Shown piece after piece: positions 19,986 through 40,721 of a DNA stretch of 64,000 bases. Within the stretch, counting starts at the first letter, position 1, and each line of letters starts with the position of its first letter. The position numbers and the translations under genes are program-made. This DNA is from Halobacterium sp. DL1 (GTDB lineage Archaea; Halobacteriota; Halobacteria; Halobacteriales; Halobacteriaceae): assembly GCA_000230955.3 (NCBI GenBank), contig CP007061.1:186001-250000 (forward strand). Direction: 5' to 3'. The notes below the pieces were generated by a model. That model was not told where the DNA came from and did no database searches. It saw only the letters and a program-made list of their open reading frames with translations.

Positions 19986-20034
19986 GACTTAATTTCTGAC
20001 TTGACGGTACTTTCACGGCTCCGGAGCCAAATAT

Positions 20035-21433
20035 CAGTACTTCACAAAGCCGCTTAGTTAGAACGTCTGCTTGCTGAAGGTGTGTCTAAAACCAAACAAG
20101 CAGACGGTGAGATCCACGAGGACCAGCTTCTTAACTTTCTCGTCAACCGCCTTGACGAGGAAGTTTCGCTCTCGTTAGCCAATAACGCTGAAATCACTGC
20201 TGAAGACATCTATGAGGTCCTCGTCGGCGCTTGCGCCGACGGGACCTCTGTCTCTACGCTCTGTGCGTCGAGCCAGAACTCACCCGCTGGGAACACGGTC
20301 CTCTACCATCTTCGGACGAAGTTCGAGCCGGAACGGCTCGAACGAGTCGCTAACACGCTCCTGCGAAAGGATCTCGATGAATTGCTCCCCGAACAGGTGG
20401 AGGTCTGCGCAGACCTCCACCTGCGGCCCTACTACGGTGACGAAGACGACACAGACGGCCTCTATCACTCGGTAGCGAAGCGTGGAACCACTGCGTTCCA
20501 CGCCTATGCCACACTCTACGCGCGTGTGAAGAACAAACGCTACACGCTGGCGGTACGCCGTCTCAAAGACGGCGATACCGCAAGTAGTGTCCTCGCTGAG
20601 TTCTTCGGTGTCCTCGACGGCCTTGACGCCGGGGTCAAGGCCGTCTACCTTGATCGCGGATTCTACGACAGTAAGTGTCTCACGCTGCTTCAGGCGCACA
20701 ATTACGCGTACGTGATCCCGATCATCCGGTGGGGTGAGGCGATTCAGCAAGAGCTCTCGGAAGGATGGAGTCGCGTCATTCAGCATGATCTGACGGGGAA
20801 ACTCGACGGTCACAGCTGGACCGTCGATTTTCCCGTCTACATCGACTGTACGTACCTAAATGGGAAGTATGACGAGAACGGTGTGGCGCGTCACGGCTAC
20901 GCCGCTGACGCGCCGTTCATCGACTCACCACGGGACGCTCGATACCACTACTCGAAACGCTTCGGTATCGAGTCAAGCTATCGCTTGTTTGAGCAAGCGA
21001 TAGCGACAACGACAACACGAGATCCAACGGTACGGCTGCTGTACGTGGTGGTGAGTCTCCTCTTACAGAACGTCTGGCGGTACCTTCACTACGAGTATGT
21101 GGCGACGCCCCGCCGAGGCGGGCGTCGCCTCTGGTGGTGGCCGTACAAGGAGTTCGTCAATATGATTCGACGAGCTGCGTGGACGGCCCTCGCGGTGCGT
21201 CGGGCCGTCCCCGCGAATCGGCCACCTGACGACCGATTCCACCGCTAACCACCGACCGAGCAAGCCAGCGGAGTGAGTGGCGACGCTGTCGCGTCGGCGG
21301 CTGACCGCCGCCGACAGCGACAGCTCTCCGTCGATCCGTCCGTAATTCTCTCGTCGAGACCGTCAGTACAACCGCTTCGACACAGAACTCAGGCCGCAGA
21401 AACAGCTAGCCGAGGATGCTTTGTGAGGTACTG
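20035..21433 (+). mobile_element. ISH3-type insertion sequence, copy 1, 1399 bp
   Basis: The limits come from comparison with the near-identical copy at 39130-40528. The ends are CAGTACTTCACAAAG and, inverted, CAGTACCTCACAAAG. ISH3-type elements normally give a 5-bp target duplication, but the flanks (AATAT on the left, AATGT on the right) do not match exactly. The right end cuts a tyrosine recombinase gene, so an adjacent deletion probably followed insertion. Confidence 0.88.
20082..21248 (+). CDS. ISH3-type transposase, copy 1, 388 aa
   Basis: A DDE transposase with the acidic triad plausibly in VCADLHLRPYYG, VKAVYLDRGFYDS and YSKRFGIESSYRLF, as in the ISH3 group. It starts at GTG 20082, 47 bases inside the left end. 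It is identical to the copy at 39177 except for Ala/Val in the segment GYAADAPF versus GYAADVPF. Both are full length. Confidence 0.88.
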   Translation: MSKTKQADGEIHEDQLLNFLVNRLDEEVSLSLANNAEITAEDIYEVLVGACADGTSVSTLCASSQNSPAGNTVLYHLRTKFEPERLERVANTLLRKDLDELLPEQVEVCADLHLRPYYGDEDDTDGLYHSVAKRGTTAFHAYATLYARVKNKRYTLAVRRLKDGDTASSVLAEFFGVLDGLDAGVKAVYLDRGFYDSKCLTLLQAHNYAYVIPIIRWGEAIQQELSEGWSRVIQHDLTGKLDGHSWTVDFPVYIDCTYLNGKYDENGVARHGYAADAPFIDSPRDARYHYSKRFGIESSYRLFEQAIATTTTRDPTVRLLYVVVSLLLQNVWRYLHYEYVATPRRGGRRLWWWPYKEFVNMIRRAAWTALAVRRAVPANRPPDDRFHR

Positions 21434-21853
21434 AATGTGATCCCGAGAGGCGTAGTCGAACCGATCAAGCCGATCAAGGATAATCTCGGCTTCATCTTCC
21501 GACACGTATTCATCGCGGCTATTGTCGTCACTGGATAAGGTCGGACTCTCTACGGCATTAGACAGATTCTCCTCGACAATCTGCATCTTTTCGCACCACC
21601 GAATGAATACCCGTAGGGTATCCATCTGCGTCTTTTCACTCGCGGGTGAGAGGTCACCGTCGTCCCGTCGCCACGAACGATACTGCGTCAGATCTAACGG
21701 CGACAGGTCCGTCATTATTTTGAGGTCATCTTGTTGGTCAAACCACCGACAGAACTGACCAAGTCGGGATTTGTGACTGTTGATCGTTGATTCAGCGACC
21801 TCGGATCGCCGCGCATCTAAGTAAGTGCTAATGGCTTCTTGGGGTCGGGTCAT
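21434..21853 (-). pseudogene. Truncated tyrosine recombinase (N-terminal half only)
   Basis: The 140 native residues form the SAM-like core-binding domain of a XerC/D-type haloarchaeal integrase: STYLDARRSEVAESTINSHK, FCRWFDQQ, TLRVFIRWCEKM. The frame runs into the ISH3-type element at a point (FDYASRDHI) where intact relatives go on into the catalytic domain. The Arg, HxLR and Tyr residues are all missing. The rest of the gene is not found on either outer flank of the two ISH3 copies. It is surely inactive as a recombinase. Confidence 0.8.
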
Positions 21854-22979: not shown

Positions 22980-23771
22980 CTATGACCATCCAGCTTCTCG
23001 GCGCATCACCTCGCTGCGAAGATTTTCTATCGTCTCAATGATGTCGTCTTTCTCCATCATCTCAACCCGTCTAACTGTCAGTTCCTCTCGGAGTAATGTC
23101 GTTGTTCGACTTACAATGTTACTATTTGACGGGGGATCGGCGTACGTTCCCCCTTCCTTAATTTTGTCCAGTGCGTCGTGACAAAGGAGATCACCGCAGG
23201 CGTGCGTAACAGGAACGTAACGTGCGAAATCGTGGTCCAGAATGTCGTTGGCGAGTTCTTGGAAACCGAGGACTCGCTTCGTTCTACTGTAGTCCCGATC
23301 CTCAACCTTCCCTGAGTCACCTTCCTCATAGGTGAGTTCAGCGCCCCACCAGATCCGGTGAAGTGCGTTAGAGTAGGCGTCGGTTCCGGCCTTCAAGAAC
23401 TTTTCCTCCATGTTTCCTGGACTCTCCGGATCAAAGACGTGGTCCCACCGGTAGTGGACGAACTCCGGAAACCGAACGATACAGAGGTAGTGCCATAGCC
23501 CAGCATCCGCCGCCTCATAGCGTGTCAAATCAAGTGTACGGTGGAGTGTCGGAGCTAGCTCGGCGTCTATGAGTGAGTCCTGAGGTTCAATATCGTCATC
23601 CGCACGGATCTCCTTAATTCGCTCATCTATCGGACTCAGGTCAATAGAACGGCCCAGTGGCTGTAGGTACGGACGGAGATCATCCTCTGTGAGCACCCGA
23701 TCGCCAGCAAGGAAGCGATTATCAATTATTGGGTGGGCTGCACTCTGTAGGTGGTGAATTTCAGTTGTCAC
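22980..23771 (-). CDS. DUF6339 family protein, cassette copy A, 263 aa
   Basis: The core matches the DUF6339 pattern: a segment RYEAADAGLWHYLCIVRFPEFVHYRW (given here only in part: GLWHYLCIVRFPEFV, VHYRWDHV) and later ALHRIWWGAELTY. Its counterpart at 36130 has GLWHWLAVVRYPDLV and IHRLWWISELT. The start is GTG 23771, overlapping the upstream gene's stop by 11 bases, so the two are coupled. DUF6339 proteins are found beside MutL/MORC-like ATPases, Z1 helicases and DNA methylases in predicted restriction-type systems; the biochemical role is not known to me. Confidence 0.78.
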   Translation of the reverse strand: MTTEIHHLQSAAHPIIDNRFLAGDRVLTEDDLRPYLQPLGRSIDLSPIDERIKEIRADDDIEPQDSLIDAELAPTLHRTLDLTRYEAADAGLWHYLCIVRFPEFVHYRWDHVFDPESPGNMEEKFLKAGTDAYSNALHRIWWGAELTYEEGDSGKVEDRDYSRTKRVLGFQELANDILDHDFARYVPVTHACGDLLCHDALDKIKEGGTYADPPSNSNIVSRTTTLLREELTVRRVEMMEKDDIIETIENLRSEVMRREAGWS

Positions 23772-24831
23772 TTTGAATCGCCTCCTCGATGAGGTTCGTT
23801 GTGTCGGACGGAACGTCGTACTTCTGATGCACCGCACGCTCAATCTGTTGGACAAGGTCTGGAATATCAGCGTGGCTTCGAACGTCTTCGGCAAGTCGAA
23901 TTGCCGCCTCGTCGGAGCCGAGATCAGGATACAAATCGTCCAAGAACAAATCTAATACATCTTCCTGCCAGCCGTACTCTGGTTCGCCTGTGTCGGGACT
24001 TGTGTCGCGTGCAGTCTGCATCAGTAGCTGCGTCCAGACAGAGTGTTCAATGTAGTCGTAAAGTACGTCTCGCAGTCGTGGTGGTCCCCCCGTGTATCCC
24101 GTGTTGTTCAGAACCTCAACTACCTGTGGGTGTTCTCTGTTCAGGTAGAGTTGCGGGTTTCGAGGTCGCTCTAAGCTGAGATAATGAATATGATTCTCGT
24201 TAGGGAAGCGGTCGTAGTCGCTGAACTCCTCTATGATCGGCATGAGAAGACTTCCACCGTCCTCTCTCTCGTCAAGTTGAATGACCCACGAGAGGCCGTC
24301 AACGACTCGTGCACCAATCTTGGACGCGTGTTTCGACCCACTAGAGCCGCCTTTCTTGGTTCTGGTGAGGAACGGCTTAATCTTCACTCGCCCACGGTGA
24401 TCATCACGATTAATGCCCAGAGTAAATTCGTAGCTCCCATGATCCAAGGGAGAGTCGGCGAGTATCTGTCGGTCTCGTCTTATTGCGAGGGGGTTCTCCT
24501 TCACCAGTGCAAGACGACCCGGCGTCTCTTCCCACTCGTCAAACGGGAAGACCTCCTCAACAGTATCCTGATCAACAGTGACTGTACCTTCTAACTCCAG
24601 AGTCTTCCAGTTATCATGATCCACCAGCGACAGAAACTGGTCATCCTCGTCGAGGTCTCCTCTATCTCCGAGAGGAACCCCATCTAGACGGAAAGATTCG
24701 ACATCAAATTCAAGCGCGTCTTCTTGGTACTTGTGTGGAAGGGACTGGCTGACTAAGCTACCTGTTTGGATGTCATCTTCTCCCTCTTCATCCGATTCTG
24801 CTCCTTCGACATCTTCGTTGACAGCCGCCAT
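23761..24831 (-). CDS. Unknown middle protein of GHKL-DUF6339 cassette, copy A, 356 aa
   Basis: An acidic soluble protein with no catalytic motif I recognise. It aligns by eye with the 345 aa protein at 35091: both have a similar N-terminal strand segment (TLELEGTVTV / TITLHGKLRL), then ETVEEVFPFDEW/ETVQAVFPQDEQ, and a C-terminal SVWTQLLMQ.../GVWVQLLVQ... followed by EYGWQEDVLDLFLDDLY / EHEWQEMVLQTFARNLY. The TAATG junction with the ATPase gene shows coupling. The beta-rich N-terminus and helical C-terminus suggest a structural or recognition subunit. Function unknown. Confidence 0.78.
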   Translation of the reverse strand: MAAVNEDVEGAESDEEGEDDIQTGSLVSQSLPHKYQEDALEFDVESFRLDGVPLGDRGDLDEDDQFLSLVDHDNWKTLELEGTVTVDQDTVEEVFPFDEWEETPGRLALVKENPLAIRRDRQILADSPLDHGSYEFTLGINRDDHRGRVKIKPFLTRTKKGGSSGSKHASKIGARVVDGLSWVIQLDEREDGGSLLMPIIEEFSDYDRFPNENHIHYLSLERPRNPQLYLNREHPQVVEVLNNTGYTGGPPRLRDVLYDYIEHSVWTQLLMQTARDTSPDTGEPEYGWQEDVLDLFLDDLYPDLGSDEAAIRLAEDVRSHADIPDLVQQIERAVHQKYDVPSDTTNLIEEAIQSDN

Positions 24832-26723
24832 TATTCCTCCCTCCGTTCTGCCACATCAACCGATACTTTCAATCGGGTTTCAACTTGTCTGTAGTCTTCT
24901 GTTGAGACACCCTCAAAGGAGATCTTTGATGTACCCGGAGCTGGCTCCAGCCGTCCCACTTGGACTCCTTTCTGTTTTGGAAGCGATATTGAGACTCCAG
25001 CCGTATCAGATGAGATATTCTGTACGGGAAGACGATCCGACGTCGCTCTCTCCTCTGCCATTCGGATCAGTGAGACGGTGACGGCTCGCACCTCGTTACG
25101 GTCGCTCAAAGGCTCTACCTCGCCGTTGAACGACCAGTGTGTGTACACCTCATCAAACGATATATTCGTGTTTCCGGTGACACGCTGACTACTGGGTGAC
25201 TCACGATCAGAACGACCACTTCGTGATTCGTTTCCGATCTTAAACCGTTTTCCCAGACGTTGAGGGCCAGTCGTGCCTCGGTCAACGTCGGGTGCGACGA
25301 GTCTACGTAACGTCTCGGTCACGTCTGACTTGATACCCTCTACTGCGGTCCGAAACCCCCGAGAGTAGGTGTTTGCCAGTGTCTCGGTTCGCACCCATTC
25401 ATCATGCTGGGGTGGCTCTGCAGCGGTCAAGAATTCCTCTAAGATAGTGTCTACCTCTTGTGGACTTTCATCAGTTCCCCATGGTCGAGCACGTCCACCG
25501 AGGAGGACAGCGTGAAAGTCTTGATTTCCGACGACAACTCGATCTCGGTCGTAATACTCAACAACCATTCCTGCACCCCGGACGAACGCCACCTCGTTCC
25601 GATGCTGATACTCGCCGGATTCCGCGTACCGAACTAACAAGTCAAGTTGGCCGTCTGCACCGCCCCTGCCGTCACTCTTTTTCGGGACGTTAAGTGATAT
25701 TGTTTTTTGAGCGACATTTCCAGGTTCGTCCAGCTGACTAACCGAGTCATCACGGTCGTCCAGACAGCTCGTGAAGGGCTTGTACTGTGGATATTCGTCG
25801 ATACTTGCTTGTTTCGTCTCACCTTCCACTTCGACCGCTACCTCCAGATCACCACGATAAATCGCAGGCCAGAACCATTCGATTGCCATCTCCGTGATCT
25901 GGTCCGCTAACTCTTCGTCGTTCAGCCGCTCTTCCGCCGTAGGTACGCGGAAGTCAACAACTTGGATACTCGTTCCCGGTACGTCCGGACGACTCAATTG
26001 GAGGTCGTCCGCTATTGATTCAGCTTTTTCTCCCCAGATAGACTCCGGCCTCGCGCCCTCTTCATCACCGTTTAGACCACCATACCAACCGTGCCCTTGG
26101 TAGACCGTATCTCCATCCTCCGACTTGTGCGTCGGCAAGCGTGTTCGACCGATCAATCGTGGGGACTGGTCCTTCGGGTCAGGCTCACTCAGCGACGAAT
26201 TGAACATGACGAGTGATAGGCCCGAGTACAGCCAGAGGACAGCCTTCCCCAGACCATAACTCCCCCCAGCGGTATCGCCCGACTTGCTACTGAATAGAAC
26301 GTCCCGGACCAGAGCAGTGAAGTTTGATTCGTCAGCGTTCTCTTCACCGAGTAGGCCCTCCGTGTTCTCGTCCTCAATAGTCAGAACACGGATCTGCTCG
26401 TCGTTTTTTATGCGCTTAATCGCCTCAGCGATATGCTTGCCACTCTCTGTATTTGTCGCCAAATTAGCGTGCTCGGACCATGTTTCAATATCAAGTGCTC
26501 TGAGGTACTCAATTGCCTCATCGCCCTGTAAGGATTCTAGTTTGAATGTAACCCGTGCCGGTTGATCATTGTCCAACCGTGCGTCGTTCGAGTTCTGTAA
26601 CACCTCTCGAACAAACGTTTTCAGCCCCGGTTCACCGTGCGACATCGCGTACTTTGCGACATCGTCACCGTATCGAGCATCAGTCGGTCGAGATGTGGTG
26701 AATCCCCACTGACCGCTCATCAC
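24831..26723 (-). CDS. GHKL ATPase, cassette copy A, 630 aa
   Basis: The first ~170 residues show the Bergerat (HSP90/MutL/gyrase-type) ATP fold: N-box FVREVLQNSNDAR (37-49), G1-like IEDENTEGL (116-124) and lid/G2 GDTAGGSYGLGKAVLW (149-164). The remaining ~450 residues are not recognised. The cassette-B protein at 33190 has the same motif set, spacing and length and conserved later blocks (WFWPAIYRGDLEV, RGAGMVV, SRGFRTAVEGI). It begins the minus-strand run GHKL, 356 aa, DUF6339. By analogy with MutL/MORC it would act as an ATP-driven DNA clamp. The second codon is also Met. Confidence 0.85.
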   Translation of the reverse strand: MMSGQWGFTTSRPTDARYGDDVAKYAMSHGEPGLKTFVREVLQNSNDARLDNDQPARVTFKLESLQGDEAIEYLRALDIETWSEHANLATNTESGKHIAEAIKRIKNDEQIRVLTIEDENTEGLLGEENADESNFTALVRDVLFSSKSGDTAGGSYGLGKAVLWLYSGLSLVMFNSSLSEPDPKDQSPRLIGRTRLPTHKSEDGDTVYQGHGWYGGLNGDEEGARPESIWGEKAESIADDLQLSRPDVPGTSIQVVDFRVPTAEERLNDEELADQITEMAIEWFWPAIYRGDLEVAVEVEGETKQASIDEYPQYKPFTSCLDDRDDSVSQLDEPGNVAQKTISLNVPKKSDGRGGADGQLDLLVRYAESGEYQHRNEVAFVRGAGMVVEYYDRDRVVVGNQDFHAVLLGGRARPWGTDESPQEVDTILEEFLTAAEPPQHDEWVRTETLANTYSRGFRTAVEGIKSDVTETLRRLVAPDVDRGTTGPQRLGKRFKIGNESRSGRSDRESPSSQRVTGNTNISFDEVYTHWSFNGEVEPLSDRNEVRAVTVSLIRMAEERATSDRLPVQNISSDTAGVSISLPKQKGVQVGRLEPAPGTSKISFEGVSTEDYRQVETRLKVSVDVAERREE

Positions 26724-28444: not shown

Positions 28445-29221
28445 TCATCGAAACTCGTCCAACTGGCGGTTGTCGTCGCTTTTGCGTTTAGTATCCATCC
28501 GCTCATCGTAGTTGGAGTAGTCCACTCGACCCTCTGAGATTCCTTGTTCGTCCTCGTACACCATCAACCATAGTCGAACCAGGTAGTAGATGAACGGCGC
28601 TGGAATCGCGTTCTTCGCTATGTGACTCTTCGGATATGGCCTCGGTGGATAGTTTTTCACCGCCGCCCACCATTCTTTGGACCGTTCGGAGAAGAAGAAA
28701 GACGAAGTTTCCGTTTTATCCGACGGTCCATCTGTCGTCAAGAACCGCTTCTCCCGGGGAGGCTGTGGAACCTTAAACGAAGTCTCGAACGCACGCTCGT
28801 ACTCAATCGGCATACCGAACATCCGTCCATTCAATACGACGGGATCATCGAGCGGCGCACGCGGAACGTTTTCGATGATGTGGTGATCACAGTAATTCTC
28901 TGCAAGCACCCGTGCACTAGGGATCATGTTCTCGTGCTCGTCGGGATCTCCCGAGATACTTGTCGTCGCAGCCCACCGCGAGCAGACTGGGTGAAACAGT
29001 CCGAGATCGAACGTGACGTCGTCCTTAATCGGGAAATCCCACTTCTTCTCCTTAATGTGGGCGTCTGCTTTGATTGGCGTACTCTCGTTCGTGTCCTTGG
29101 GGTCAATCCCGACACGAATTACGTTCCCAAAGTCGCTGAGTACCTCTGATTCTGTCCCGTAATCCGCAAAACAGTGGAGAATAAGTGGTTCTTCGGGCAT
29201 GGTGTCCCCGTTTGAAGTCAT
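28445..29221 (-). CDS. C5-cytosine methyltransferase-like protein, 258 aa
   Basis: The order of short motifs is that of a compact phage-type cytosine-C5 methyltransferase: LILHCFADYGTESE (SAM-binding position), DLGLFHPVCS with the catalytic-position Cys 80, IIENVPRAPLDDPVVL (ENV motif, ~117) and RMFGMPIEYERAFETSF. The PPCQ box is HPVCS and motif I is unusual. It lies 57 bases upstream of the GIY-YIG gene on the same strand. It could be an active modification enzyme or a degenerate relative. The alternative start is Met 8. Confidence 0.68.
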   Translation of the reverse strand: MTSNGDTMPEEPLILHCFADYGTESEVLSDFGNVIRVGIDPKDTNESTPIKADAHIKEKKWDFPIKDDVTFDLGLFHPVCSRWAATTSISGDPDEHENMIPSARVLAENYCDHHIIENVPRAPLDDPVVLNGRMFGMPIEYERAFETSFKVPQPPREKRFLTTDGPSDKTETSSFFFSERSKEWWAAVKNYPPRPYPKSHIAKNAIPAPFIYYLVRLWLMVYEDEQGISEGRVDYSNYDERMDTKRKSDDNRQLDEFR

Positions 29222-29587
29222 TCGGAATCACCTAACCGATGTTCAACGCTTTGGAGGCTGCTAAGAGAACCCCCTGTAGAGAACACCCGTGTAGAGTCTG
29301 TGTAGATGTAGAGTGTCACTGTTGTGCGCTTAGACGGTGACCCAATTAAAAGTCTCTATCTGAAAACGGTACTCAAGCGTAGTCCAATTCACGCAGCTGC
29401 ATAAGAAATTTCTCGCATGGTGATGAGCTTGAGTAGTTGTGCTATACAAATAGTGCATCTTGGTGATTGAAATTGACGACAGGTACAGATGCGGGGTCAG
29501 CCGTAGATAGGTGCCGGTATCGCGTGATTTCTAAGTTATATGGTATTCTATAAAAAGAGATAAGTCGACTCGAAGGACTCCTGAAGT
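29222..29587. promoter_or_regulatory. Divergent promoter region of the defence island
   Basis: The 366 bases between the methyltransferase-like gene and the MORC-like gene are AT-rich and hold no supported gene. A TATA-like TTCTATAAAAAG lies at about 29547-29558, about 30 bases before the ATG at 29588. The left part likely holds the promoter of the minus-strand run. Confidence 0.5.
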
Positions 29588-31579
29588 ATGCCCAATGAGG
29601 AGACGTTTGATCCACTCGAAACTGCAGATAATTCGGCGGATAATGAAGAGTTGAAATTCCGAACAATAAAAAAGAGAATAAACAACGTTCTTAGTGACTA
29701 TCGTAACGCCGTGGACGTTCTGGCCGAGCCGGTTCAAAATGCCATGGACGCCATCGTAAGAGCAGACGATAGCGGATTGTATGACGATGATGAAGAGCCC
29801 AAACTAACAGTTACAATCGATACTGAAGAAAACGTAATCGCCGTCGAGGACAACGGACGAGGATTCCCATACGAGGAACTGAAACAATACATCGCCCCGG
29901 AAGTAACAAATAAAGAAGAACTTTTTGAACAGGGAAAAGTGCGCGGACACAAGGGCGTCGGACTCACATTCTTGGCATATGGATTCAACCACTTTGAGGT
30001 AGAATCTGTCCTTAACGACGACGCCTACCGGGTGGTTCTCAAGGACAGTCGGACGTGGGCCGAGAGTGATGAGTACGACGCCGACTCACGGCCACAAGCG
30101 GAGGCGAACCATTGCGATCCTAGCGATCTGCAGATAGATGGACGGCGTGGGACACGAATTGAGATCCACACTGACGAGCTGTCGAATCCCAGTGTCCTCT
30201 CACGAGCGTTCAACACAGCAGAAATGACCAAGACGATTCTGGAGACACAGACGGCAATCGGTGTACTACCACCAGTCAGTGAGAACCATGTCCCGGTGAA
30301 CGTAAAATTAGACTACCCCTCAAACGATGAGAGTCCCTTTGATGTGGATGACCAGTACAGGTATCCCCATCAGAAAATTAATGTTGATCTCGGGGATGGC
30401 GAATCAGAACTGGAGACTGTCGATATAGGGGAGTATAATTATGACGAAGATGCTGAGAATGCGGTTGGTGGAGTCCTTCCTGAAGACCAGAACAGGTACC
30501 ACGGAGTCTACAATTGGTTTGATGCAGACGACATTGCCGGACGATTTCAAGAAGATCATCTGACCGAAGAGTTCAGTGATGTTGACGAAATGGAGGAGTT
30601 CATTAAGGAACGTTCTCTCACCGTGTACGTATTGTACACCTATTCTAACGAATATAGAAACGAACTAAAGAAACGGTGGGATGTGAGGGGGACTAGAAAG
30701 TTTCACAGCCCAGGAGTAAGGATCGGCACGGACGGCATGATATCCACCTGATACCGCCCTGTGAACCTTTCTTTCAGTGCTCCTCGTGAAACCAGACTAT
30801 GGTTCATATATCACTTCTTGGGCGAGAGCCCAGACACTGGTCGAGAGGACTTCTCTCCGGAGGTGCATGCGGTTGTCAGCCAAACTGAACAATTCTTACA
30901 CAAAGCGACAGTGACGAAAGGCAAAACATTCCTACGTCCTACGCCGAGCGATGGCGGGTCGTTTGACGACGTTGAGCCTGTTGAAAAAGCAATAAATAAA
31001 GATGATCTCTCACCGAGAGAAGTCGGAAATTACGGGGAACTGCCACAGGTGAAAGAACCAGGTGAAGAACAGGACTCAATCGCAGTCTTCAATCAACTAG
31101 TCGGGATGGGGCTGTTAGAATGTTACGAGCCGTACTATCTCAGTACTTTGGACGATTATGATGGTTTCTTGAAATATAATCCAGACAAGGTACCCAGTGG
31201 TCTTCGAGATGTTCTCCCTGGATCATCTGATCCTTCAGGATCTGAAAAGAATATAACTGTCGAATTCAAACGTGAGGGAGTAGACATTATTAAGCATGTA
31301 GTGAATGAAACGCGGAAGTGGAGCGAAATGGATCTTCTTGTCTGCTGGAACTTAGGTGGGCAGTCTGATAATGATAACTCAATAGATGCATCTAAGGAGT
31401 GGGGAGGTGACGAAATAACATTCCGACAGCCAACGTCTCAGGAAGATAGATTGTACGCGGGTGTGACGCACATTGCACAGTTAGTCTCCAAAGGAGATGT
31501 CCCTCTACACACAATTGAACTCAGTTCGCTTATAGCGAAATTCAATGAAGAAGGACCCGAAGATAATAATGACGAGTGA
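29588..31579 (+). pseudogene. MORC/MutL-like GHKL ATPase interrupted by an in-frame TGA
   Basis: Codons 1-387 (to 30751) contain a clear Bergerat ATP fold: VLAEPVQNAMDAI (N-box, 44-56), VEDNGRGFP (G1, 86-94) and GHKGVGLTF (G2, 120-128). After the TGA at 30749-30751 the same frame stays open to 31579 and begins mid-domain (SAPRETRLWFIYHFLGE). The C-terminal part has ITVEFKREGVDIIKHV and DLLVCWNL, like a PD-(D/E)XK or accessory domain seen on some MORC-type ATPases. One base change (TGA from GGA or CGA) would explain the break. A GTG at 30761 could start the C-terminal part as a separate 272 aa protein. Confidence 0.72.
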
Positions 31580-31880
31580 CGCAGTTACAGAAGTCAGATA
31601 AACGATAGGACATCACACAGTGTGTCATTCGATTATTTTGGCTCTACGACAATCTGGTTGAATAAAACGATAGCTGTTCGTTGAATACATCCTCTCAGTC
31701 TTGTTTAGACGCGGCACAGATCACACGCAGTTTTGTATAATCTACGAAATCCAGAGAAGAACTCATGGACGAGTTCTAATTACTTAGTAGTTTGATTGGG
31801 TACTCGTGGCAGCTTTCTTTCCCCATTTGAGCGGGTTCGTCTGAAATCGGCGCTCCGCTTCAGATGACATCAGTTCTCTC
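31580..31880. other. Intergenic DNA between convergent genes
   Basis: The two flanking genes end here from opposite sides. The stretch is AT-rich, has no supported gene, and presumably holds both terminators. I see no strong hairpin. Confidence 0.45.
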
Positions 31881-32996
31881 TCAATCGTCAGCGACAGTAG
31901 CTTCAACAGACTGCGCTGTCGCACCGACGTGCGAAAGGATTGCCTGGCCCATGTATTCACCGAGCTTTGGGGGGACTGCGTTACCGATCAGTCGGCCTAG
32001 ATTTGACACACCGACGTCTTCCCAGTCATCGTAGAAGTCATAGTCTTCCGGGAACGTCTGAAGCAGTGCCCCCTCAAGAATCGAGAGTGCTCGATTCTGG
32101 CCTGTGTCGTAATGTCCAAAGCGACCACTGCCGTAATTGTAGAATTGCGTCGTTATCGTCGGAGCAGGTTCATCGGGCCGCATCCGGCTGTAAGGTGCTT
32201 TGTATGAGCGTCCACTCGCCTTCCGATGGCAGTCTGCAAGGAGATGGTTAAGATCTTCCTCTTCCCAGAGTGTCCAATCTCCACCGGGTTTCATGTTATC
32301 GATACGTTCCAAGTTCTTTTCCGAGAGAGAACGTGCTCTATGCACGTCGTTCTCGTCACTGTCTTCCCCTGCTTCGATTGGTGGCAGATGATCAATCGTG
32401 TCTTCAACCGTCGGATAGTCGTCTTCATTCTGAATGGGAGGGTTGGGAAGAGAGATAGGTCCCCGCTTGGACGCCATAACCACCCATCGCTTCCGCTTCT
32501 GTGGAATGCCGTATTCTGGACAATAGACGTTCTTGTTATCGTCACTGTTGACGTGGTAGCCTTGTGATTCAAGGCTCTCTATGAACGCGTCGTAGACGCC
32601 GTCTTCTTGTTTCACTTGGAGTACGTTTTCGGTTACCACCACGTCCGGTTTAACGTACTCTACGATCCGGGACACTTCATTTAGTAGACCCCACTTTTGA
32701 TGATCTTCACGATTTTTGCCCTTTGAGTGTCCCATTGTGGAGTAGGGTTGACAAGGCGCGCATGCCGCAAGGACCTTCAGATCCGCATCCCACGGGTACA
32801 TCTGTGCGATTGGTTCGGGATCTTTTGCCAACGCGTGGATGTCTGATTTAATATATTGTCCGTCAATATTCTGTTCGTATGGATACTTACAGTCCGGATC
32901 CTTATCGATCCCAGCAACGACCGAGACGCCAGATTGTTGGAGGCCATAACTGAGTCCGCCAGCCCCGCAGAACAGATCCACTGCAGCTACCTTCAT
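31881..32996 (-). CDS. DNA (cytosine-5)-methyltransferase, Dcm type, 371 aa
   Basis: All the usual motifs are present in order: DLFCGAGGLSYGL (motif I, 7-19), ACAPCQPYS (motif IV with catalytic Cys 82), VTENVLQ (motif VI, 121-127), PQKRKRWVVMAS (motif VIII), a target-recognition region with AYKAPYSRMRPDEPAPTITT (motif IX), and LIGNAVPPKL (motif X). It transfers a methyl group from SAM to carbon 5 of cytosine in a specific DNA sequence. It is divergent from the cassette-B ATPase gene at 33190 and is likely the modification enzyme of that system. Confidence 0.93.
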   Translation of the reverse strand: MKVAAVDLFCGAGGLSYGLQQSGVSVVAGIDKDPDCKYPYEQNIDGQYIKSDIHALAKDPEPIAQMYPWDADLKVLAACAPCQPYSTMGHSKGKNREDHQKWGLLNEVSRIVEYVKPDVVVTENVLQVKQEDGVYDAFIESLESQGYHVNSDDNKNVYCPEYGIPQKRKRWVVMASKRGPISLPNPPIQNEDDYPTVEDTIDHLPPIEAGEDSDENDVHRARSLSEKNLERIDNMKPGGDWTLWEEEDLNHLLADCHRKASGRSYKAPYSRMRPDEPAPTITTQFYNYGSGRFGHYDTGQNRALSILEGALLQTFPEDYDFYDDWEDVGVSNLGRLIGNAVPPKLGEYMGQAILSHVGATAQSVEATVADD

Positions 32997-33189: not shown

Positions 33190-35094
33190 ATGGATCAGGA
33201 GCAAATACAAATCAACGAAGCGGTCAATTGGTTCTTTTTCAGTGGTGGACCAGGAGCGCCACGTTACGGCGACGACCCAACCAAACACGCCGTTGACCAT
33301 GACTCCGAGGCGTTTGTTCGTGAGGTCCTCCAAAACGCGAACGATCAGGGCCTCCCGAACGACGATCCCGTCGAAGTGACATTCCGTTTCGTCACGCTCA
33401 CGGGTAATGAGAAAGAGGAGTTCCTTGACGGACTCGGTTGGGACGATGGACTCAATGAACGGATGCGGGCGGTTGCAGACACACATAATGGCCGTCGCTA
33501 TGAACGGGTCGTTGAACGAGCCCGCGATCCTGATACCGAACTCCGTCTCCTCGTCGTGGAAGACAGGAACACAACTGGCTTGACCGGAAGCTGGGACGAA
33601 GACTCAAACTACGCTGCGCTCGTTCGCGACGAACTCTACAGCAGCAAGCAAGACGATACCGCCGGTGGCTCGTACGGCCTTGGTAAGTCCGTACTTTGGA
33701 CGTTCTCGGGTGCTTCGACGGTTGTCTTCAATTCGCACCTCGCACATGGTGTGCGTAAGGACGATTCCCCGCGACTTATCGCTCGCTCTAAGTTCCCTAC
33801 ACATCAACTCCCGGAAGACAATACGACGTACCAAGGTGCGGGGTGGCTCTGCCAGACTATCGAAACGGACGATGGCCCCCGCCCGGAGTCCCTCTGGGGA
33901 GAGAATGCGTCACGGCTAGCAGAACAGTTGTACGTGGAACGGCCTGCTGTTAGCGGAACGAGCGCCATGGTCGTCGAGTTCCAAGATCCGACACGAGACG
34001 AGCGACCGGATGTCGAAGACCTCGCACAGGAGTTTGTGGACGCCTCTGTCAAATACTTCTGGCCAGCGATCTATCGAGGTGACCTCGAAATTACAGTCGA
34101 AACGCCAGACGAGACACTGATGGCCGATGTCGAGAGCGTCCCAGCGATCCGACCGTTCGTGGAGGCTTACGACGAGAGAACTACGGATGCTCAGACTCTG
34201 GTAGATCCCGGAGACGTTGCTGGACTTGACATCCCGGTAAAGATCCCGCCTCGTGCCGATGGAGATGAGACTCCCGACGGCTCAGTACGGTTGTCGGCTC
34301 GTCTCGCATCCCCCGCAGACGACGATTCGTACCTGAATAACGTCGCGCTGTTCCGTGGGGCAGGGATGGTGGTCAAGTATTACGACCAGAGCCGTGTCGC
34401 CTACGGCGACCGAAACTTCTTCGGCGTGTTGGCTGCTGGTGAAGCACGGTTGGAAGGGACACCGTCCGAGAGTGACCGAGAAATCGACCGGTTCCTTCGG
34501 TTCGCTGAACCACCCGAGCATGACGAATGGGAGTCTACCGAGAACCTCCGTGAACAGTATCAACGTGGCTTCCGGACGGCACTCGACGATATGTTCGGAA
34601 CGCTCCGTGACGGTCTTCGTCACTTGATCTCGAAGGGTAGCAACAGTGATTCCCTCTCCGACAACGTTCTGAACCGGTTCCCGATCCACGGGAGTGGGAA
34701 CCCCCGATCCACGACATCGCCTGTTAAGCCTGCCTTCGAGATCGACAGCTCGTCTCGCTTTGATGGTGACGCATGGATGATCTCTGGTCGAATTAAAGTA
34801 CTGTCAGAGGAGTTTAACGGATGGAGTGCTGACATCTCACTCACCGGTGTTGGCGAGGACGGATCCCGTTATGATGACATTCCTATCGATCACGTTGAGA
34901 TCGAACAATCCGGTGTAACCGTTTCATACGATGATGGATGTGCTCGTCTTGTCGCCGATGAATCTGTCCATGAAGTATCTTTCTCTGGTCGTTCTCATTC
35001 CGATGAAGCCGCTGACTTAGTGCACGGCGACGTCGGCGCGACCCAACTGGAGATACTCGCAGAGTTACAGACACCCGAGGAGAATAAAGCATGA
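33190..35094 (+). CDS. GHKL ATPase, cassette copy B, 634 aa
   Basis: The protein is a full-length paralogue of the ATPase at 24831. It has FVREVLQNANDQG (N-box, ~42-54), VVEDRNTTGLTG (G1-like) and DTAGGSYGLGKSVLW (lid/G2). Conserved later blocks include YFWPAIYRGDLEI, NNVALFRGAGMVVKYYD and YQRGFRTALDDM. The N-terminus reads GAPRYGDDPTKHAVDH, matching DARYGDDVAKYAMSH in copy A. The ATGA junction with the next gene shows translational coupling. The cassette is divergent from a Dcm-type methylase. ATP-dependent DNA sensing or clamping is inferred from the family. Confidence 0.87.
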   Translation: MDQEQIQINEAVNWFFFSGGPGAPRYGDDPTKHAVDHDSEAFVREVLQNANDQGLPNDDPVEVTFRFVTLTGNEKEEFLDGLGWDDGLNERMRAVADTHNGRRYERVVERARDPDTELRLLVVEDRNTTGLTGSWDEDSNYAALVRDELYSSKQDDTAGGSYGLGKSVLWTFSGASTVVFNSHLAHGVRKDDSPRLIARSKFPTHQLPEDNTTYQGAGWLCQTIETDDGPRPESLWGENASRLAEQLYVERPAVSGTSAMVVEFQDPTRDERPDVEDLAQEFVDASVKYFWPAIYRGDLEITVETPDETLMADVESVPAIRPFVEAYDERTTDAQTLVDPGDVAGLDIPVKIPPRADGDETPDGSVRLSARLASPADDDSYLNNVALFRGAGMVVKYYDQSRVAYGDRNFFGVLAAGEARLEGTPSESDREIDRFLRFAEPPEHDEWESTENLREQYQRGFRTALDDMFGTLRDGLRHLISKGSNSDSLSDNVLNRFPIHGSGNPRSTTSPVKPAFEIDSSSRFDGDAWMISGRIKVLSEEFNGWSADISLTGVGEDGSRYDDIPIDHVEIEQSGVTVSYDDGCARLVADESVHEVSFSGRSHSDEAADLVHGDVGATQLEILAELQTPEENKA

Positions 35095-36128
35095 CCAGGC
35101 ACTCGCAGCGACACCGTACTACGACACTTCCGTTCAGCTACCGAGATAAGGGAATAGACTTTGAACTGAACTCGTTCACCGTTGACGACGGCAATCAAAG
35201 AGCACTTGAACTGAACCCGGCACAGACAGAGATAAACTTCGCATCAAAAGTATCGTCGTCCGACAGTAGTGATGAGCCGGACTGGAACACCATTACTCTC
35301 CACGGAAAACTGCGCCTACCTGAGGAGACAGTCCAAGCCGTCTTCCCACAGGATGAACAAGCACAGCCCCCGGCCAAGCTCTACGTCACCATTCGCTGTC
35401 ACGAGACGATCTACCGCGATCGGATCGTCATCTCCGGAGCACCTACAACATCCGGTGAATACGACGTTAGGCTGGAAGTTCCAAAAAGTACTGTCCGAGG
35501 GACTGTCGAACTGCGTCCGTACCTTGTTCGCACAGAGTCTCATCCGAGAGAAGAACCGAGCGATTACGCCGATCAGAAGAACTTCCGGGTCGCCAGTGGG
35601 ACGCTGTACTACGTTGTCGTCGATCGCTCCGAAGATGAAGAACGAGCCGCCATCGACGGTGAGCGAGTACGCTTTTCACAAAACGCTCACCTCCCAGATG
35701 GGAATAAGCTCTACTATCTTGACTTCCGGAACGAGAGTCGTCCTAAATTGTGGATCAACTCTGACCATCCCCGTATTGCCGAGGTACTACAGAGTAGAGG
35801 ATCTGTCGGGGCTGAGGCTCGGATGCGTGACGTGATACTTGACCAAACGAGCTACGGTGTGTGGGTACAACTGCTCGTTCAAGCTGGAAGTGCTGTGGGC
35901 CCAGAGGGCGACGTTGAACACGAATGGCAGGAAATGGTACTCCAGACGTTCGCTCGTAACCTCTACGATACTAACGACGTATCAGAAGCAACTCACCGTC
36001 TCAGGGACGATCTCTCTGATCCACAGACCCTACCCCACGTGATACAGCGGATCGATAGTGAACTTCAAGAGTATATAAATCCCCGAGAACAGCTGATCCA
36101 CCTTATGGAGGAGGGCCTCCAGATCTAA
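35091..36128 (+). CDS. Unknown middle protein of GHKL-DUF6339 cassette, copy B, 345 aa
   Basis: The gene overlaps the ATPase stop by 4 bases (ATGA) and ends one base before the DUF6339 gene. It is a paralogue of the 356 aa protein at 23761, with matching blocks LYYLDFRNESRPKLWIN versus HYLSLERPRNPQLYLN and YGVWVQLLVQ versus HSVWTQLLMQ. It is soluble, with an apparently beta-rich first 180 residues and a helical C-terminus. No known domain is recognised. The strict cassette order suggests that it forms a complex with the ATPase. Confidence 0.8.
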   Translation: MTRHSQRHRTTTLPFSYRDKGIDFELNSFTVDDGNQRALELNPAQTEINFASKVSSSDSSDEPDWNTITLHGKLRLPEETVQAVFPQDEQAQPPAKLYVTIRCHETIYRDRIVISGAPTTSGEYDVRLEVPKSTVRGTVELRPYLVRTESHPREEPSDYADQKNFRVASGTLYYVVVDRSEDEERAAIDGERVRFSQNAHLPDGNKLYYLDFRNESRPKLWINSDHPRIAEVLQSRGSVGAEARMRDVILDQTSYGVWVQLLVQAGSAVGPEGDVEHEWQEMVLQTFARNLYDTNDVSEATHRLRDDLSDPQTLPHVIQRIDSELQEYINPREQLIHLMEEGLQI

Positions 36129-36129
36129 C

Positions 36130-36819
36130 ATGACCGAGACAGAATTACATCGACTGACTGAAGACGGACGCCGTCTTGTTGGTCAATCGTTTATGCAAGG
36201 CGAGGCGGCACTCACCGATGAACAGCTGAAGGAGTACGTAGAGCCCATACCAGGCCATCCGAAGGCCGACCTCAACAGGATCGATTCAGCGGTGCAACAG
36301 GTGCTTCAGGAGTACTCAGAGTACGACACAGCTATAGATGGTGCACTCGCTGAAGACATTCACCATGGCCTCAACATTACAAGACGAACTGCCGGGGATC
36401 CGGGGCTCTGGCACTGGCTTGCAGTGGTCCGGTATCCTGATCTCGTTCGGCACCGGTGGGAGTATCGCTCTGAGGAGGCGATGAGGGAGAAATTCCTCGG
36501 CGCAGGCTCCGACTTGTACTCAAACGCTATCCACCGACTCTGGTGGATTTCGGAGCTTACGTCCCGTGGCGACGATTATTCCACGACTGACGCAGTCTTC
36601 GCCAACCAGACAATGGTTAACAAGGTATTTGACCGCTGGTTCGCACGCTATCAACCTGCGGTTCAAGTTATGTGTGACGAACTCGCAGATGAGCCGTCAC
36701 GTGTCATAGATGAGACGACGCGACGGTTCAACCATGCACTGACGAACGTACAACTTGAAGGGCTATCAGAGGATGAAGCACGAGAAATAATCCGCGAGAT
36801 CATTGCTGAATCTCAATGA
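36130..36819 (+). CDS. DUF6339 family protein, cassette copy B, 229 aa
   Basis: The conserved centre reads GDPGLWHWLAVVRYPDLVRH, then AIHRLWWISELTS. The N-terminal region LTDEQLKEYVEPIPGHPKADLNRID corresponds to LTEDDLRPYLQPLGRSIDLSPID in copy A. It starts 1 base after the preceding stop and closes the plus-strand cassette. Members of this family are found in predicted restriction-like operons with GHKL ATPases; activity unknown. Confidence 0.8.
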   Translation: MTETELHRLTEDGRRLVGQSFMQGEAALTDEQLKEYVEPIPGHPKADLNRIDSAVQQVLQEYSEYDTAIDGALAEDIHHGLNITRRTAGDPGLWHWLAVVRYPDLVRHRWEYRSEEAMREKFLGAGSDLYSNAIHRLWWISELTSRGDDYSTTDAVFANQTMVNKVFDRWFARYQPAVQVMCDELADEPSRVIDETTRRFNHALTNVQLEGLSEDEAREIIREIIAESQ

Positions 36820-39032: not shown

Positions 39033-39129
39033 GATCTTGTAACTTAAATCCTCGATAGAAAATAACTAACATGGGACCATGGCTCTATTCAGTTTCAACA
39101 GCGCAGTAATCGGGTTTCTTCCCCAGGTT

Positions 39130-40528
39130 CAGTACTTCACAAAGCCGCTTAGTTAGAACGTCTGCTTGCTGAAGGTGTGTCTAAAACCAAACAAGCAGAC
39201 GGTGAGATCCACGAGGACCAGCTTCTTAACTTTCTCGTCAACCGCCTTGACGAGGAAGTTTCGCTCTCGTTAGCCAATAACGCTGAAATCACTGCTGAAG
39301 ACATCTATGAGGTCCTCGTCGGCGCTTGCGCCGACGGGACCTCTGTCTCTACGCTCTGTGCGTCGAGCCAGAACTCACCCGCTGGGAACACGGTCCTCTA
39401 CCATCTTCGGACGAAGTTCGAGCCGGAACGGCTCGAACGAGTCGCTAACACGCTCCTGCGAAAGGATCTCGATGAATTGCTCCCCGAACAGGTGGAGGTC
39501 TGCGCAGACCTCCACCTGCGGCCCTACTACGGTGACGAAGACGACACAGACGGCCTCTATCACTCGGTAGCGAAGCGTGGAACCACTGCGTTCCACGCCT
39601 ATGCCACACTCTACGCGCGTGTGAAGAACAAACGCTACACGCTGGCGGTACGCCGTCTCAAAGACGGCGATACCGCAAGTAGTGTCCTCGCTGAGTTCTT
39701 CGGTGTCCTCGACGGCCTTGACGCCGGGGTCAAGGCCGTCTACCTTGATCGCGGATTCTACGACAGTAAGTGTCTCACGCTGCTTCAGGCGCACAATTAC
39801 GCGTACGTGATCCCGATCATCCGGTGGGGTGAGGCGATTCAGCAAGAGCTCTCGGAAGGCTGGAGTCGCGTCATTCAGCATGATCTGACGGGGAAACTCG
39901 ACGGTCACAGCTGGACCGTCGATTTTCCCGTCTACATCGACTGTACGTACCTAAATGGGAAGTATGACGAGAACGGTGTGGCGCGTCACGGCTACGCCGC
40001 TGACGTGCCGTTCATCGACTCACCACGGGACGCTCGATACCACTACTCGAAACGCTTCGGTATCGAGTCAAGCTATCGCTTGTTTGAGCAAGCGATAGCG
40101 ACAACGACAACACGAGATCCAACGGTACGGCTGCTGTACGTGGTGGTGAGTCTCCTCTTACAGAACGTCTGGCGGTACCTTCACTACGAGTATGTGGCGA
40201 CGCCCCGCCGAGGCGGGCGTCGCCTCTGGTGGTGGCCGTACAAGGAGTTCGTCAATATGATTCGACGAGCTGCGTGGACGGCCCTCGCGGTGCGTCGGGC
40301 CGTCCCCGCGAATCGGCCACCTGACGACCGATTCCACCGCTAACCACCGACCGAGCAAGCCAGCGGAGTGAGTGGCGACGCTGTCGCGTCGGCGGCTGAC
40401 CGCCGCCGACAGCGACAGCTCTCCGTCGATCCGTCCGTAATTCTCTCGTCGAGACCGTCAGTACAACCGCTTCGACACAGAACTCAGGCCGCAGAAACAG
40501 CTAGCCGAGGATGCTTTGTGAGGTACTG
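39130..40528 (+). mobile_element. ISH3-type insertion sequence, copy 2, 1399 bp
   Basis: This is a near-identical direct repeat of the element at 20035-21433, with at least two base differences (GGCTGG for GGATGG near 39858, GTG for GCG near 40004). The ends are the same inverted CAGTAC(T/C)TCACAAAG. The flanks (AGGTT and AAACT) give no target duplication. The two copies enclose 17.7 kb and could recombine to delete it. Confidence 0.88.
39177..40343 (+). CDS. ISH3-type transposase, copy 2, 388 aa
   Basis: A full-length DDE transposase with GTG start, identical to the copy at 20082 apart from one Ala-to-Val change (GYAADVPF). All three putative catalytic acidic segments are intact. Its close identity to copy 1 points to recent transposition or gene conversion. 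Confidence 0.88.
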   Translation: MSKTKQADGEIHEDQLLNFLVNRLDEEVSLSLANNAEITAEDIYEVLVGACADGTSVSTLCASSQNSPAGNTVLYHLRTKFEPERLERVANTLLRKDLDELLPEQVEVCADLHLRPYYGDEDDTDGLYHSVAKRGTTAFHAYATLYARVKNKRYTLAVRRLKDGDTASSVLAEFFGVLDGLDAGVKAVYLDRGFYDSKCLTLLQAHNYAYVIPIIRWGEAIQQELSEGWSRVIQHDLTGKLDGHSWTVDFPVYIDCTYLNGKYDENGVARHGYAADVPFIDSPRDARYHYSKRFGIESSYRLFEQAIATTTTRDPTVRLLYVVVSLLLQNVWRYLHYEYVATPRRGGRRLWWWPYKEFVNMIRRAAWTALAVRRAVPANRPPDDRFHR

Positions 40529-40721
40529 AAACTGGATAAATCTCTCCCCTCTTCGAATCGAATTTTGTATTATCCAATAGAGTGGTTGGATATAATTACC
40601 GGATGCGTATTAGCAATATTGTAGCGCTTATGAACAAATTCGCCTCCACTCATCGTTTTGGTTTGGATAAATAGTTAGCGAAATAATGTCTCCATACTTT
40701 CTATTTGGTGGGTGTTAACCC

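What the first reader, a model, noticed from the sequence alone, without database searches (positions are those of the whole stretch)
29588..31579. In-frame TGA divides a MORC-like GHKL ATPase gene
Codons 388 onward continue in the same frame for 276 codons with normal coding character, starting inside a domain. The break is one codon (TGA at 30749-30751). Either the gene is freshly inactivated, or the two halves are made separately (GTG at 30761), or the stop is read through. If a nonsense mutation disabled the ATPase while flanking methylases remain, the island may be in decay or in a switched-off state.
Basis: seen in the sequence. Interest (0 to 1): 0.55.

Follow-up and report, generated by a model that had tools for sequence, protein, structure and literature searches.

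The report
Broken ATPase-nuclease in archaeal defence island
In this salt-loving archaeon a gene for a probable DNA-cutting defence protein has been cut in two by one stop signal, apparently recently, while the neighbouring defence genes stay intact; this looks like an ordinary loss of one swappable weapon.

Summary
One TGA (30749-30751, codon 388) interrupts a 663-codon frame with no other internal stop. Nine of nine relatives found are uninterrupted proteins of 651-678 aa; the stop column is Trp in both haloarchaeal ones and Asp/Glu in the seven bacterial or prophage-like ones. The stop falls in a predicted beta strand (low-confidence model). It separates a GHKL ATPase domain from a C-terminal domain with invariant E...D...ExK residues, a likely but unproven PD-(D/E)xK nuclease: paraMORC3-like architecture, probably working like VcSduA. 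Best reading: a recent nonsense mutation disabled an optional restriction-type effector. Reinitiation, read-through or assembly error are not excluded. The 'decaying island' inference is not supported: all 8 related islands examined keep the methyltransferase and PDC-M33 operons without this gene. The gene lies on a roughly 2.4-kb segment, at a place where some related islands hold other restriction-type genes; it replaced a MutY-like glycosylase gene, leaving a frameshifted stub. Decay of RM systems by REase loss has been suggested for Halobacteria.

The parts
29588..30751 (+). N-terminal half: GHKL (HATPase_c_3) ATPase domain plus start of the middle/transducer domain; 387 aa, ends at the premature TGA
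   Evidence: PF13589 E 2.2e-07, over cut-off; GHKL motif residues E47, N51, D54, D88, G90, G92, G120, G123, G125 retained
30749..30751 (+). premature in-frame TGA, codon 388; Trp in 2 of 2 haloarchaeal relatives, Asp/Glu in 7 of 7 bacterial or prophage-like relatives
30752..31579 (+). C-terminal half left in frame: rest of the middle domain and putative PD-(D/E)xK nuclease (E494, D525, E559-x-K561)
   Evidence: no Pfam family
30761..30763 (+). GTG that could in principle restart translation; aligned with V/T/I positions in relatives, so most simply an ordinary valine codon
29398..31797 (.). segment without counterpart in five closely related islands; borders approximate (matches end at 29,364-29,399 and resume at 31,797-31,817); carries the ATPase-nuclease gene
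31797..31870 (-). stub (about 25 codons, one frameshift) of a MutY-like HhH-GPD glycosylase gene that follows the methyltransferase in relatives
31881..32996 (-). C5 cytosine DNA methyltransferase, full length, 87-91% identical in five relatives
28445..29221 (-). 258-aa conserved protein; C5-methyltransferase-like motifs by eye only, no family hit
33190..36819 (+). PDC-M33-type three-gene operon (A 33190-35094, B 35091-36128, C 36130-36819), full length; A and C match PADLOC models, B was not scanned against PADLOC and is placed by homology
22980..26723 (-). second PDC-M33-type three-gene operon, full length; A and C match PADLOC models, B has no PADLOC match

Best explanation
The locus once encoded one protein of about 663 residues: an N-terminal GHKL ATPase, a middle (S5/Hsp90-like) domain and a C-terminal restriction-fold nuclease. 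Inferred mechanism, by analogy with VcSduA and paraMORC3 proteins: ATP binding closes a dimeric clamp on incoming DNA and licenses the nuclease to cut it, with self DNA spared by a C5 methyltransferase or another mark. A single, probably recent nonsense mutation at codon 388 now ends the protein inside the middle domain, so the nuclease is no longer attached to the ATPase and the effector is most likely dead. The methyltransferase and PDC-M33-type operons are untouched, because the ATPase-nuclease was an exchangeable cargo gene placed beside them by replacement of a segment that previously held a glycosylase gene. Shown: the stop, full-length uninterrupted relatives, conserved residues on both sides, the exchange borders and the full-length neighbours. 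Inferred: the nuclease fold and activity, the defence role, the self/non-self logic, the date of the break, and loss of function in the cell.
For: Nine of nine relatives found, as distinct records, are uninterrupted, each with a sense codon at the column. Columns that are invariant in the other eight aligned rows: the window agrees at 42 of 44 (N half) and 26 of 29 (C half); leaving out each other row in turn gives 42 of 42-46 and 26 of 26-28. One internal stop and no frameshift in 664 codons puts a rough 95% upper bound of 0.046 substitutions per site on neutral drift since the break, under an assumed transition bias and ignoring indels. The break is mid-strand in the model. The best 50 Foldseek matches of the full model are Hsp90-type and GyrB chains, at low TM-scores. 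The C-domain model (mean pLDDT 71) has EcoT38I, MspJI and Cap4, PD-(D/E)xK enzymes (recalled), in 7 of the 8 listed rows of the structural second look, but only at Z 2.2-2.9. Defence context: beside C5 methyltransferases in H. rara and on a Rhizobium plasmid, and between tail genes in two phage-like contigs. Fullmer et al. 2019 (passages) suggest that haloarchaeal RM systems decay through loss of the REase.
Against: No read data: the TGA could be an assembly error. Relative-rate tests disagree: no excess on the window branch against H. rara with G175 as outgroup (53 against 61), nor against G175 with Rhizobium as outgroup (46 against 39), but an excess against H. rara with Rhizobium as outgroup (42 against 22, chi2 6.25; C half alone 18 against 7, chi2 4.84), which could mean older relaxation. 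The window also has the most departures of any row in the C half at otherwise invariant columns, 3 against 0-2. Plain Foldseek found no PDB match for the C domain at E <= 0.001, and Z values under 3 prove little. In H. rara the gene stands beside a second C5 methyltransferase; the window genome has only one match to this methyltransferase family. G175 has no methyltransferase beside its copy, only matches elsewhere in the genome.
Confidence: 0.77

Rival explanations
1. The two halves are made as separate proteins: the ribosome stops at TGA and restarts at the in-frame GTG 9 nt further on, giving an ATPase subunit and a nuclease subunit that work together.
For: The stop-to-GTG gap is 9 nt. Termination-reinitiation is reported from experiments on overlapping gene pairs in Haloferax volcanii (PMC6728339, passages). 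Both halves keep their conserved residues.
Against: 0 of 9 relatives are split. The break lies inside a predicted beta strand (low confidence), unlike a fission at a domain boundary. The GTG aligns with ordinary V/T/I positions. The reported cases are overlapping pairs.
Confidence: 0.1
2. The TGA is read through, by recoding or a suppressor tRNA, so some full-length protein is made.
For: The frame is open on both sides and conserved.
Against: TGA is the commonest stop among 62 mechanical ORFs of the window, these two halves included (28 TGA, 18 TAG, 16 TAA). ARAGORN read the anticodon of 41 of the 43 tRNAs found, and none is UCA; the other two look by eye like intron-bearing Met and Gln. The scan is incomplete: no tRNA-Trp was found. 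RNA folding around and after the stop is no better than shuffles (z -0.84, 39 of 200 as good).
Confidence: 0.05
3. The TGA is a sequencing or assembly error and the gene is intact.
For: No reads were available; a single-base difference is what an error would look like. Basecalling errors at modified sites are known (recalled), and this locus has a DNA methyltransferase.
Against: The assembly is two contigs, 99.81% complete. The change keeps the frame and is not in a homopolymer run, so it is not the usual long-read indel (recalled).
Confidence: 0.08

Closest known systems
paraMORC3 family (Iyer, Abhiman, Aravind 2008, PMC2292703; parts 1-2 of 4 read)
   Same: GHKL ATPase plus S5-type domain plus C-terminal restriction-fold domain with E-D-ExK residues; related systems are linked to cytosine methylases and Vsr, and a subset of paraMORC3 stands alone
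   Different: Here the gene is interrupted; no paraMORC3 sequence was available to test direct kinship
VcSduA, Shedu type I-D (PMC12137116; passages and section 12)
   Same: One protein with N-terminal GHKL ATPase and C-terminal PD-(D/E)xK nuclease; both activities needed for defence there
   Different: The signature DUF4263 domain was not found in this family
BbrUII/HgiDII-type restriction enzymes (NCBIfam NF050001)
   Same: GHKL region matches weakly (E 4e-05 in G175, 0.0089 in the window N half)
   Different: Far below the 550-bit cut-off (22.3 and 14.6 bits), N-terminal region only
Haloarchaeal RM decay leaving methyltransferases (Fullmer et al. 2019, PMC6471742; abstract and passages)
   Same: Restriction partner lost, methyltransferase kept
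   Different: Here the lesion is caught as one stop codon, and the lost gene is an optional cargo of a larger island; whether the kept methyltransferase was its partner is unknown

Membership tests
paraMORC3 | N-terminal GHKL domain with ATP-binding motifs | tested here: met
   PF13589 and PF02518 over cut-off in the window N half; motif residues invariant across 9 rows
paraMORC3 | S5-type middle domain | tested here: inconclusive
   Model matches Hsp90-type and GyrB chains, but mean pLDDT is 59 and TM-scores are low
paraMORC3 | C-terminal RE-fold domain with E-D-ExK | tested here: inconclusive
   E494, D525, E559, K561 invariant in 9 of 9 rows and helix-strand order fits; structural matches only Z 2.2-2.9, no Foldseek hit at E <= 0.001
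paraMORC3 | sequence kinship with published paraMORC3 members | not tested
   Their sequences are not in the text read
Shedu (type I-D) | DUF4263 nuclease domain | tested here: not met
   No DUF4263 match for the window halves, P0001 and G175, six other full-length members or six C domains at E up to 10; HMMER's filters drop weak matches, so a remote relation is not excluded
BbrUII/HgiDII restriction enzymes | NF050001 score over cut-off | tested here: not met
   13.1-22.3 bits against a cut-off of 550
MORC proper | GhXhhpXXRhl motif in the S5 domain | tested here: inconclusive
   By eye the comparable stretch GVRIGTDGMIS has M where the motif needs R; placement uncertain
DISARM | DrmA, DrmB and DrmC encoded beside the methylase | tested here: not met
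   The methyltransferase matches a DrmMII profile (847 bits), but none of the 9 other island proteins scanned gave a DrmA, DrmB or DrmC hit; the rest of the genome was not searched
PDC-M33 candidate system (flanking operons) | M33A and M33C proteins encoded together | tested here: met
   M33A E 3.4e-36 and 5.3e-24; M33C E 3.1e-13 in both operons

The most novel reading that the evidence does not exclude
The stop is a working gene fission: reinitiation at the nearby GTG makes a separate nuclease subunit that the truncated GHKL ATPase recruits, so that the cell carries a split, tunable version of a normally one-piece ATP-gated restriction nuclease.
Probability: 0.05. Interest if true: 0.55.

Novelty: new member of a known kind. 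Interest (0 to 1): 0.3.

Why it matters
It catches what looks like a one-step loss of an ATP-gated restriction nuclease in an archaeon, with intact relatives to compare. It also points to a place in haloarchaeal PDC-M33/C5-methyltransferase islands where different restriction-type genes are found while the core is kept. The family itself, a GHKL ATPase fused to a putative PD-(D/E)xK domain, has no significant Pfam match in its C domain and no full-length PADLOC match among the nine members scanned; it was found in haloarchaea, on a Rhizobium plasmid and in viral or prophage-like contigs. Testing an intact member would be straightforward.

Tried and rejected
Relatives by the N half alone in genome contigs: none; the alignment query found one, H. 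rara. Plasmid search with the C half alone: none. Phage records with the L057 protein: none. The 13 other matches (E 2.6e-7 to 8.8e-4) were set aside as general GHKL proteins because they cover only part of the N half; so was a partial Lactiplantibacillus plasmid match. A composite transposon was set aside: the transposase of the IS copies at 20034-21435 and 39129-40530 has 11 near-identical copies in the genome, and I saw no target duplication by eye. Read-through: no UCA anticodon among the tRNAs read and no unusual RNA fold at the stop. Foldseek on the C domain gave only weak matches, mostly unrelated; VIA-align on those candidates gave rows of three PD-(D/E)xK enzymes at low Z, which I treat as support, not proof. 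A sequence search of the PDB with the C domain gave one hit at E 0.52, not used. No PADLOC model matched the window protein or G175; six of the nine members scanned hit TmtA over part of the GHKL domain, and two had hits near E 0.03 to PDC-S models. 'PDC-M33' had no paper in one search. Relative-rate tests disagreed.

Full report
OBSERVATION. The frame opens with ATG at 29588, meets TGA at 30749-30751 (codon 388) and stays open to TGA at 31577-31579, 664 codons in all including both stops. An open stretch of 275 codons has a chance of about 7e-8 in random sequence of this composition, and the second half is homologous to the same proteins as the first, so this is one interrupted gene.

RELATIVES. 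The gene is rare. With the N half, 1 of the 390 class genomes other than the window's own (391 searched with the own genome) has a relative along nearly the full query, and 13 others give only partial GHKL matches. With a two-row profile at E <= 1e-8, 2 of 391 other order genomes match (the two sets overlap). In all, nine distinct uninterrupted records were found: G175 (651 aa), Haloarcula rara NZ_CP119785.1 (678 aa; its position agrees with G434, so I count it once), a Rhizobium rhizogenes plasmid (658 aa), and six viral or prophage-like contigs: L057, L064, L065, L066, L067 (655-657 aa) and L068 (658 aa). L065 and L066 are close to each other. None has a stop or a split at the place in question. 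At the stop column both haloarchaeal relatives carry Trp and the seven others carry Asp or Glu (L068 read by eye). A sense codon is therefore the rule, and a single point substitution explains the stop.

ANATOMY. The N half matches HATPase_c_3 and HATPase_c over their cut-offs, and the GHKL residues are invariant in 9 of 9 aligned rows. After the stop lie E494, D525, E559 and K561, also invariant in 9 of 9. In the C-domain model (mean pLDDT 71, pTM 0.72) E494 begins a helix, D525 stands just before a strand, and E559 and K561 lie on a strand followed by a helix and another strand, the order expected of PD-(D/E)xK nucleases (order recalled). The structural second look lists EcoT38I, MspJI and Cap4 in 7 of 8 rows, but only at Z 2.2-2.9, where the tool warns that a common arrangement may be all that is shared; plain Foldseek had nothing at E <= 0.001. 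The nuclease is thus likely, not shown. In the full model (mean pLDDT 59) the stop falls inside strand 384-390, and the best 50 Foldseek matches are Hsp90-type and GyrB chains at low TM-scores. Truncation there should disrupt the middle domain and detach the nuclease.

AGE. At columns invariant in the other eight aligned rows the window agrees at 42 of 44 (N half) and 26 of 29 (C half); leaving out other rows in turn gives 42 of 42-46 and 26 of 26-28, so the window is unremarkable in the N half and has the most departures, three, in the C half. One internal stop without frameshift implies at most about 0.046 neutral substitutions per site since the break at 95%, under a simple model that ignores indels. 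Relative-rate tests disagree: window against H. rara 53 to 61 with G175 as outgroup but 42 to 22 with Rhizobium (chi2 6.25; C half alone 18 to 7, chi2 4.84); window against G175 46 to 39 with Rhizobium. I conclude that the loss is probably recent, with that caveat.

SURROUNDINGS. The window lies on contig C2 of a two-contig genome, a replicon of about 316 kb by subtraction. Beside the gene are a C5 methyltransferase, a conserved 258-aa protein, a 509-aa protein and two three-gene operons whose A and C proteins match PADLOC's candidate PDC-M33. The methyltransferase occurs at E <= 1e-40 in 17 of 193 other class genomes (194 searched with the own genome). I fetched 8 of those 17 islands, 15-19 kb each. 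All 8 have the methyltransferase next to an M33-type operon, and none has the ATPase-nuclease in the fetched stretch. At the far side of the methyltransferase, 6 of 8 have a MutY-like HhH-GPD glycosylase ORF (Pfam and NCBIfam were run on two of the six, the others are alike by eye, and that of L045 is shorter). The neighbouring place holds an AspBHI-type restriction endonuclease (L047), an HNH protein with another ORF (L050), a McrB-like AAA gene with a partner gene (L051) or a third M33-type operon (L046, L048); L045 has only a 137-aa ORF there, L049 only the glycosylase, L052 nothing. In H. rara the ATPase-nuclease stands 180 bp behind a second C5 methyltransferase. The Rhizobium copy is near a cytosine methyltransferase and a Vsr gene. 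G175's copy has no methyltransferase beside it. In L065 and L066 the gene lies between baseplate and tail-completion genes.

EXCHANGE. Window DNA matches the five closest islands up to 29,364-29,399 on one side and from 31,797-31,817 on the other. Between these borders lies the ATPase-nuclease gene. At the right border the first 25 or so codons of the glycosylase gene survive with one frameshift (tblastn over 17 residues E 0.003), and the rest of the window shows no other credible match to the glycosylase. The genome's best other matches are 32% and 28% identical. So the segment replaced most of the glycosylase gene. It follows, as inference, that the C5 methyltransferase here works without the partner that most of the relatives examined keep beside it.

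MECHANISM. VcSduA, a GHKL-nuclease of Vibrio cholerae, loses defence when either the ATPase or the nuclease residue is changed, and is modelled as an entwined dimer with a clamp (PMC12137116, section 12). paraMORC3 proteins share the architecture; GHKL proteins of this kind occur with RM genes, and a subset of paraMORC3 stands alone (PMC2292703, parts 1-2). I infer the same logic here. The family is not filed as Shedu, because DUF4263 was not found.

RIVALS. Separate translation of the halves is conceivable, since termination-reinitiation is reported in Haloferax volcanii (PMC6728339, passages), but no relative is split and the break is mid-strand. Read-through lacks a suppressor tRNA among those read, though the scan is incomplete, and TGA is the commonest stop in the window. 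Assembly error cannot be excluded without reads.

VERDICT. A real, probably recent nonsense mutation in an optional restriction-type gene. Decay of RM systems through REase loss has been suggested for Halobacteria (PMC6471742, passages). Moderate to low interest for the stop itself; the exchange site and the C-terminal domain without a family model are the more useful by-products.

Noticed in passing
window 31797-31870 (-): Frameshifted stub of a MutY-like HhH-GPD glycosylase gene directly behind the C5 methyltransferase; a longer ORF of this kind stands there in 6 of 8 related islands examined.
   Followed up: yes
L045-L052, region beside the methyltransferase gene: Exchange site: AspBHI-type endonuclease (L047:6908-8092), HNH protein (L050:9604-10428), McrB-like AAA gene with a partner (L051:4135-7581) or a third PDC-M33-type operon (L046, L048) in otherwise similar islands. 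Several of these resemble modification-dependent enzymes (recalled), odd beside a C5 methyltransferase.
   Followed up: partly
window 22980-26723 (-) and 33190-36819 (+): Two diverged copies of a three-gene operon matching PADLOC candidate PDC-M33; the A protein shows GHKL-like motifs by eye but no Pfam hit, and relatives such as L047 carry three copies.
   Followed up: partly
window 28445-29221 (-): 258-aa protein, 85.6-91.1% identical in five relatives, with C5-methyltransferase-like motifs by eye and no hit in Pfam, NCBIfam or PADLOC.
   Followed up: no
window 20034-21435 and 39129-40530: Two near-identical direct IS copies (2 mismatches in 1402 bp) flank the island; 11 near-identical copies of the transposase exist in the genome.
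   Followed up: partly
window 21389-21853 (-): 154-aa ORF beside the left IS copy that looks by eye like a truncated tyrosine integrase; no family search was run on it.
   Followed up: no
L065:7980-9950 and L066:7980-9950: Intact relatives of the ATPase-nuclease stand between baseplate and tail-completion genes on the opposite strand, P2-like by recall, as phage-borne defence genes often do (recalled).
   Followed up: partly
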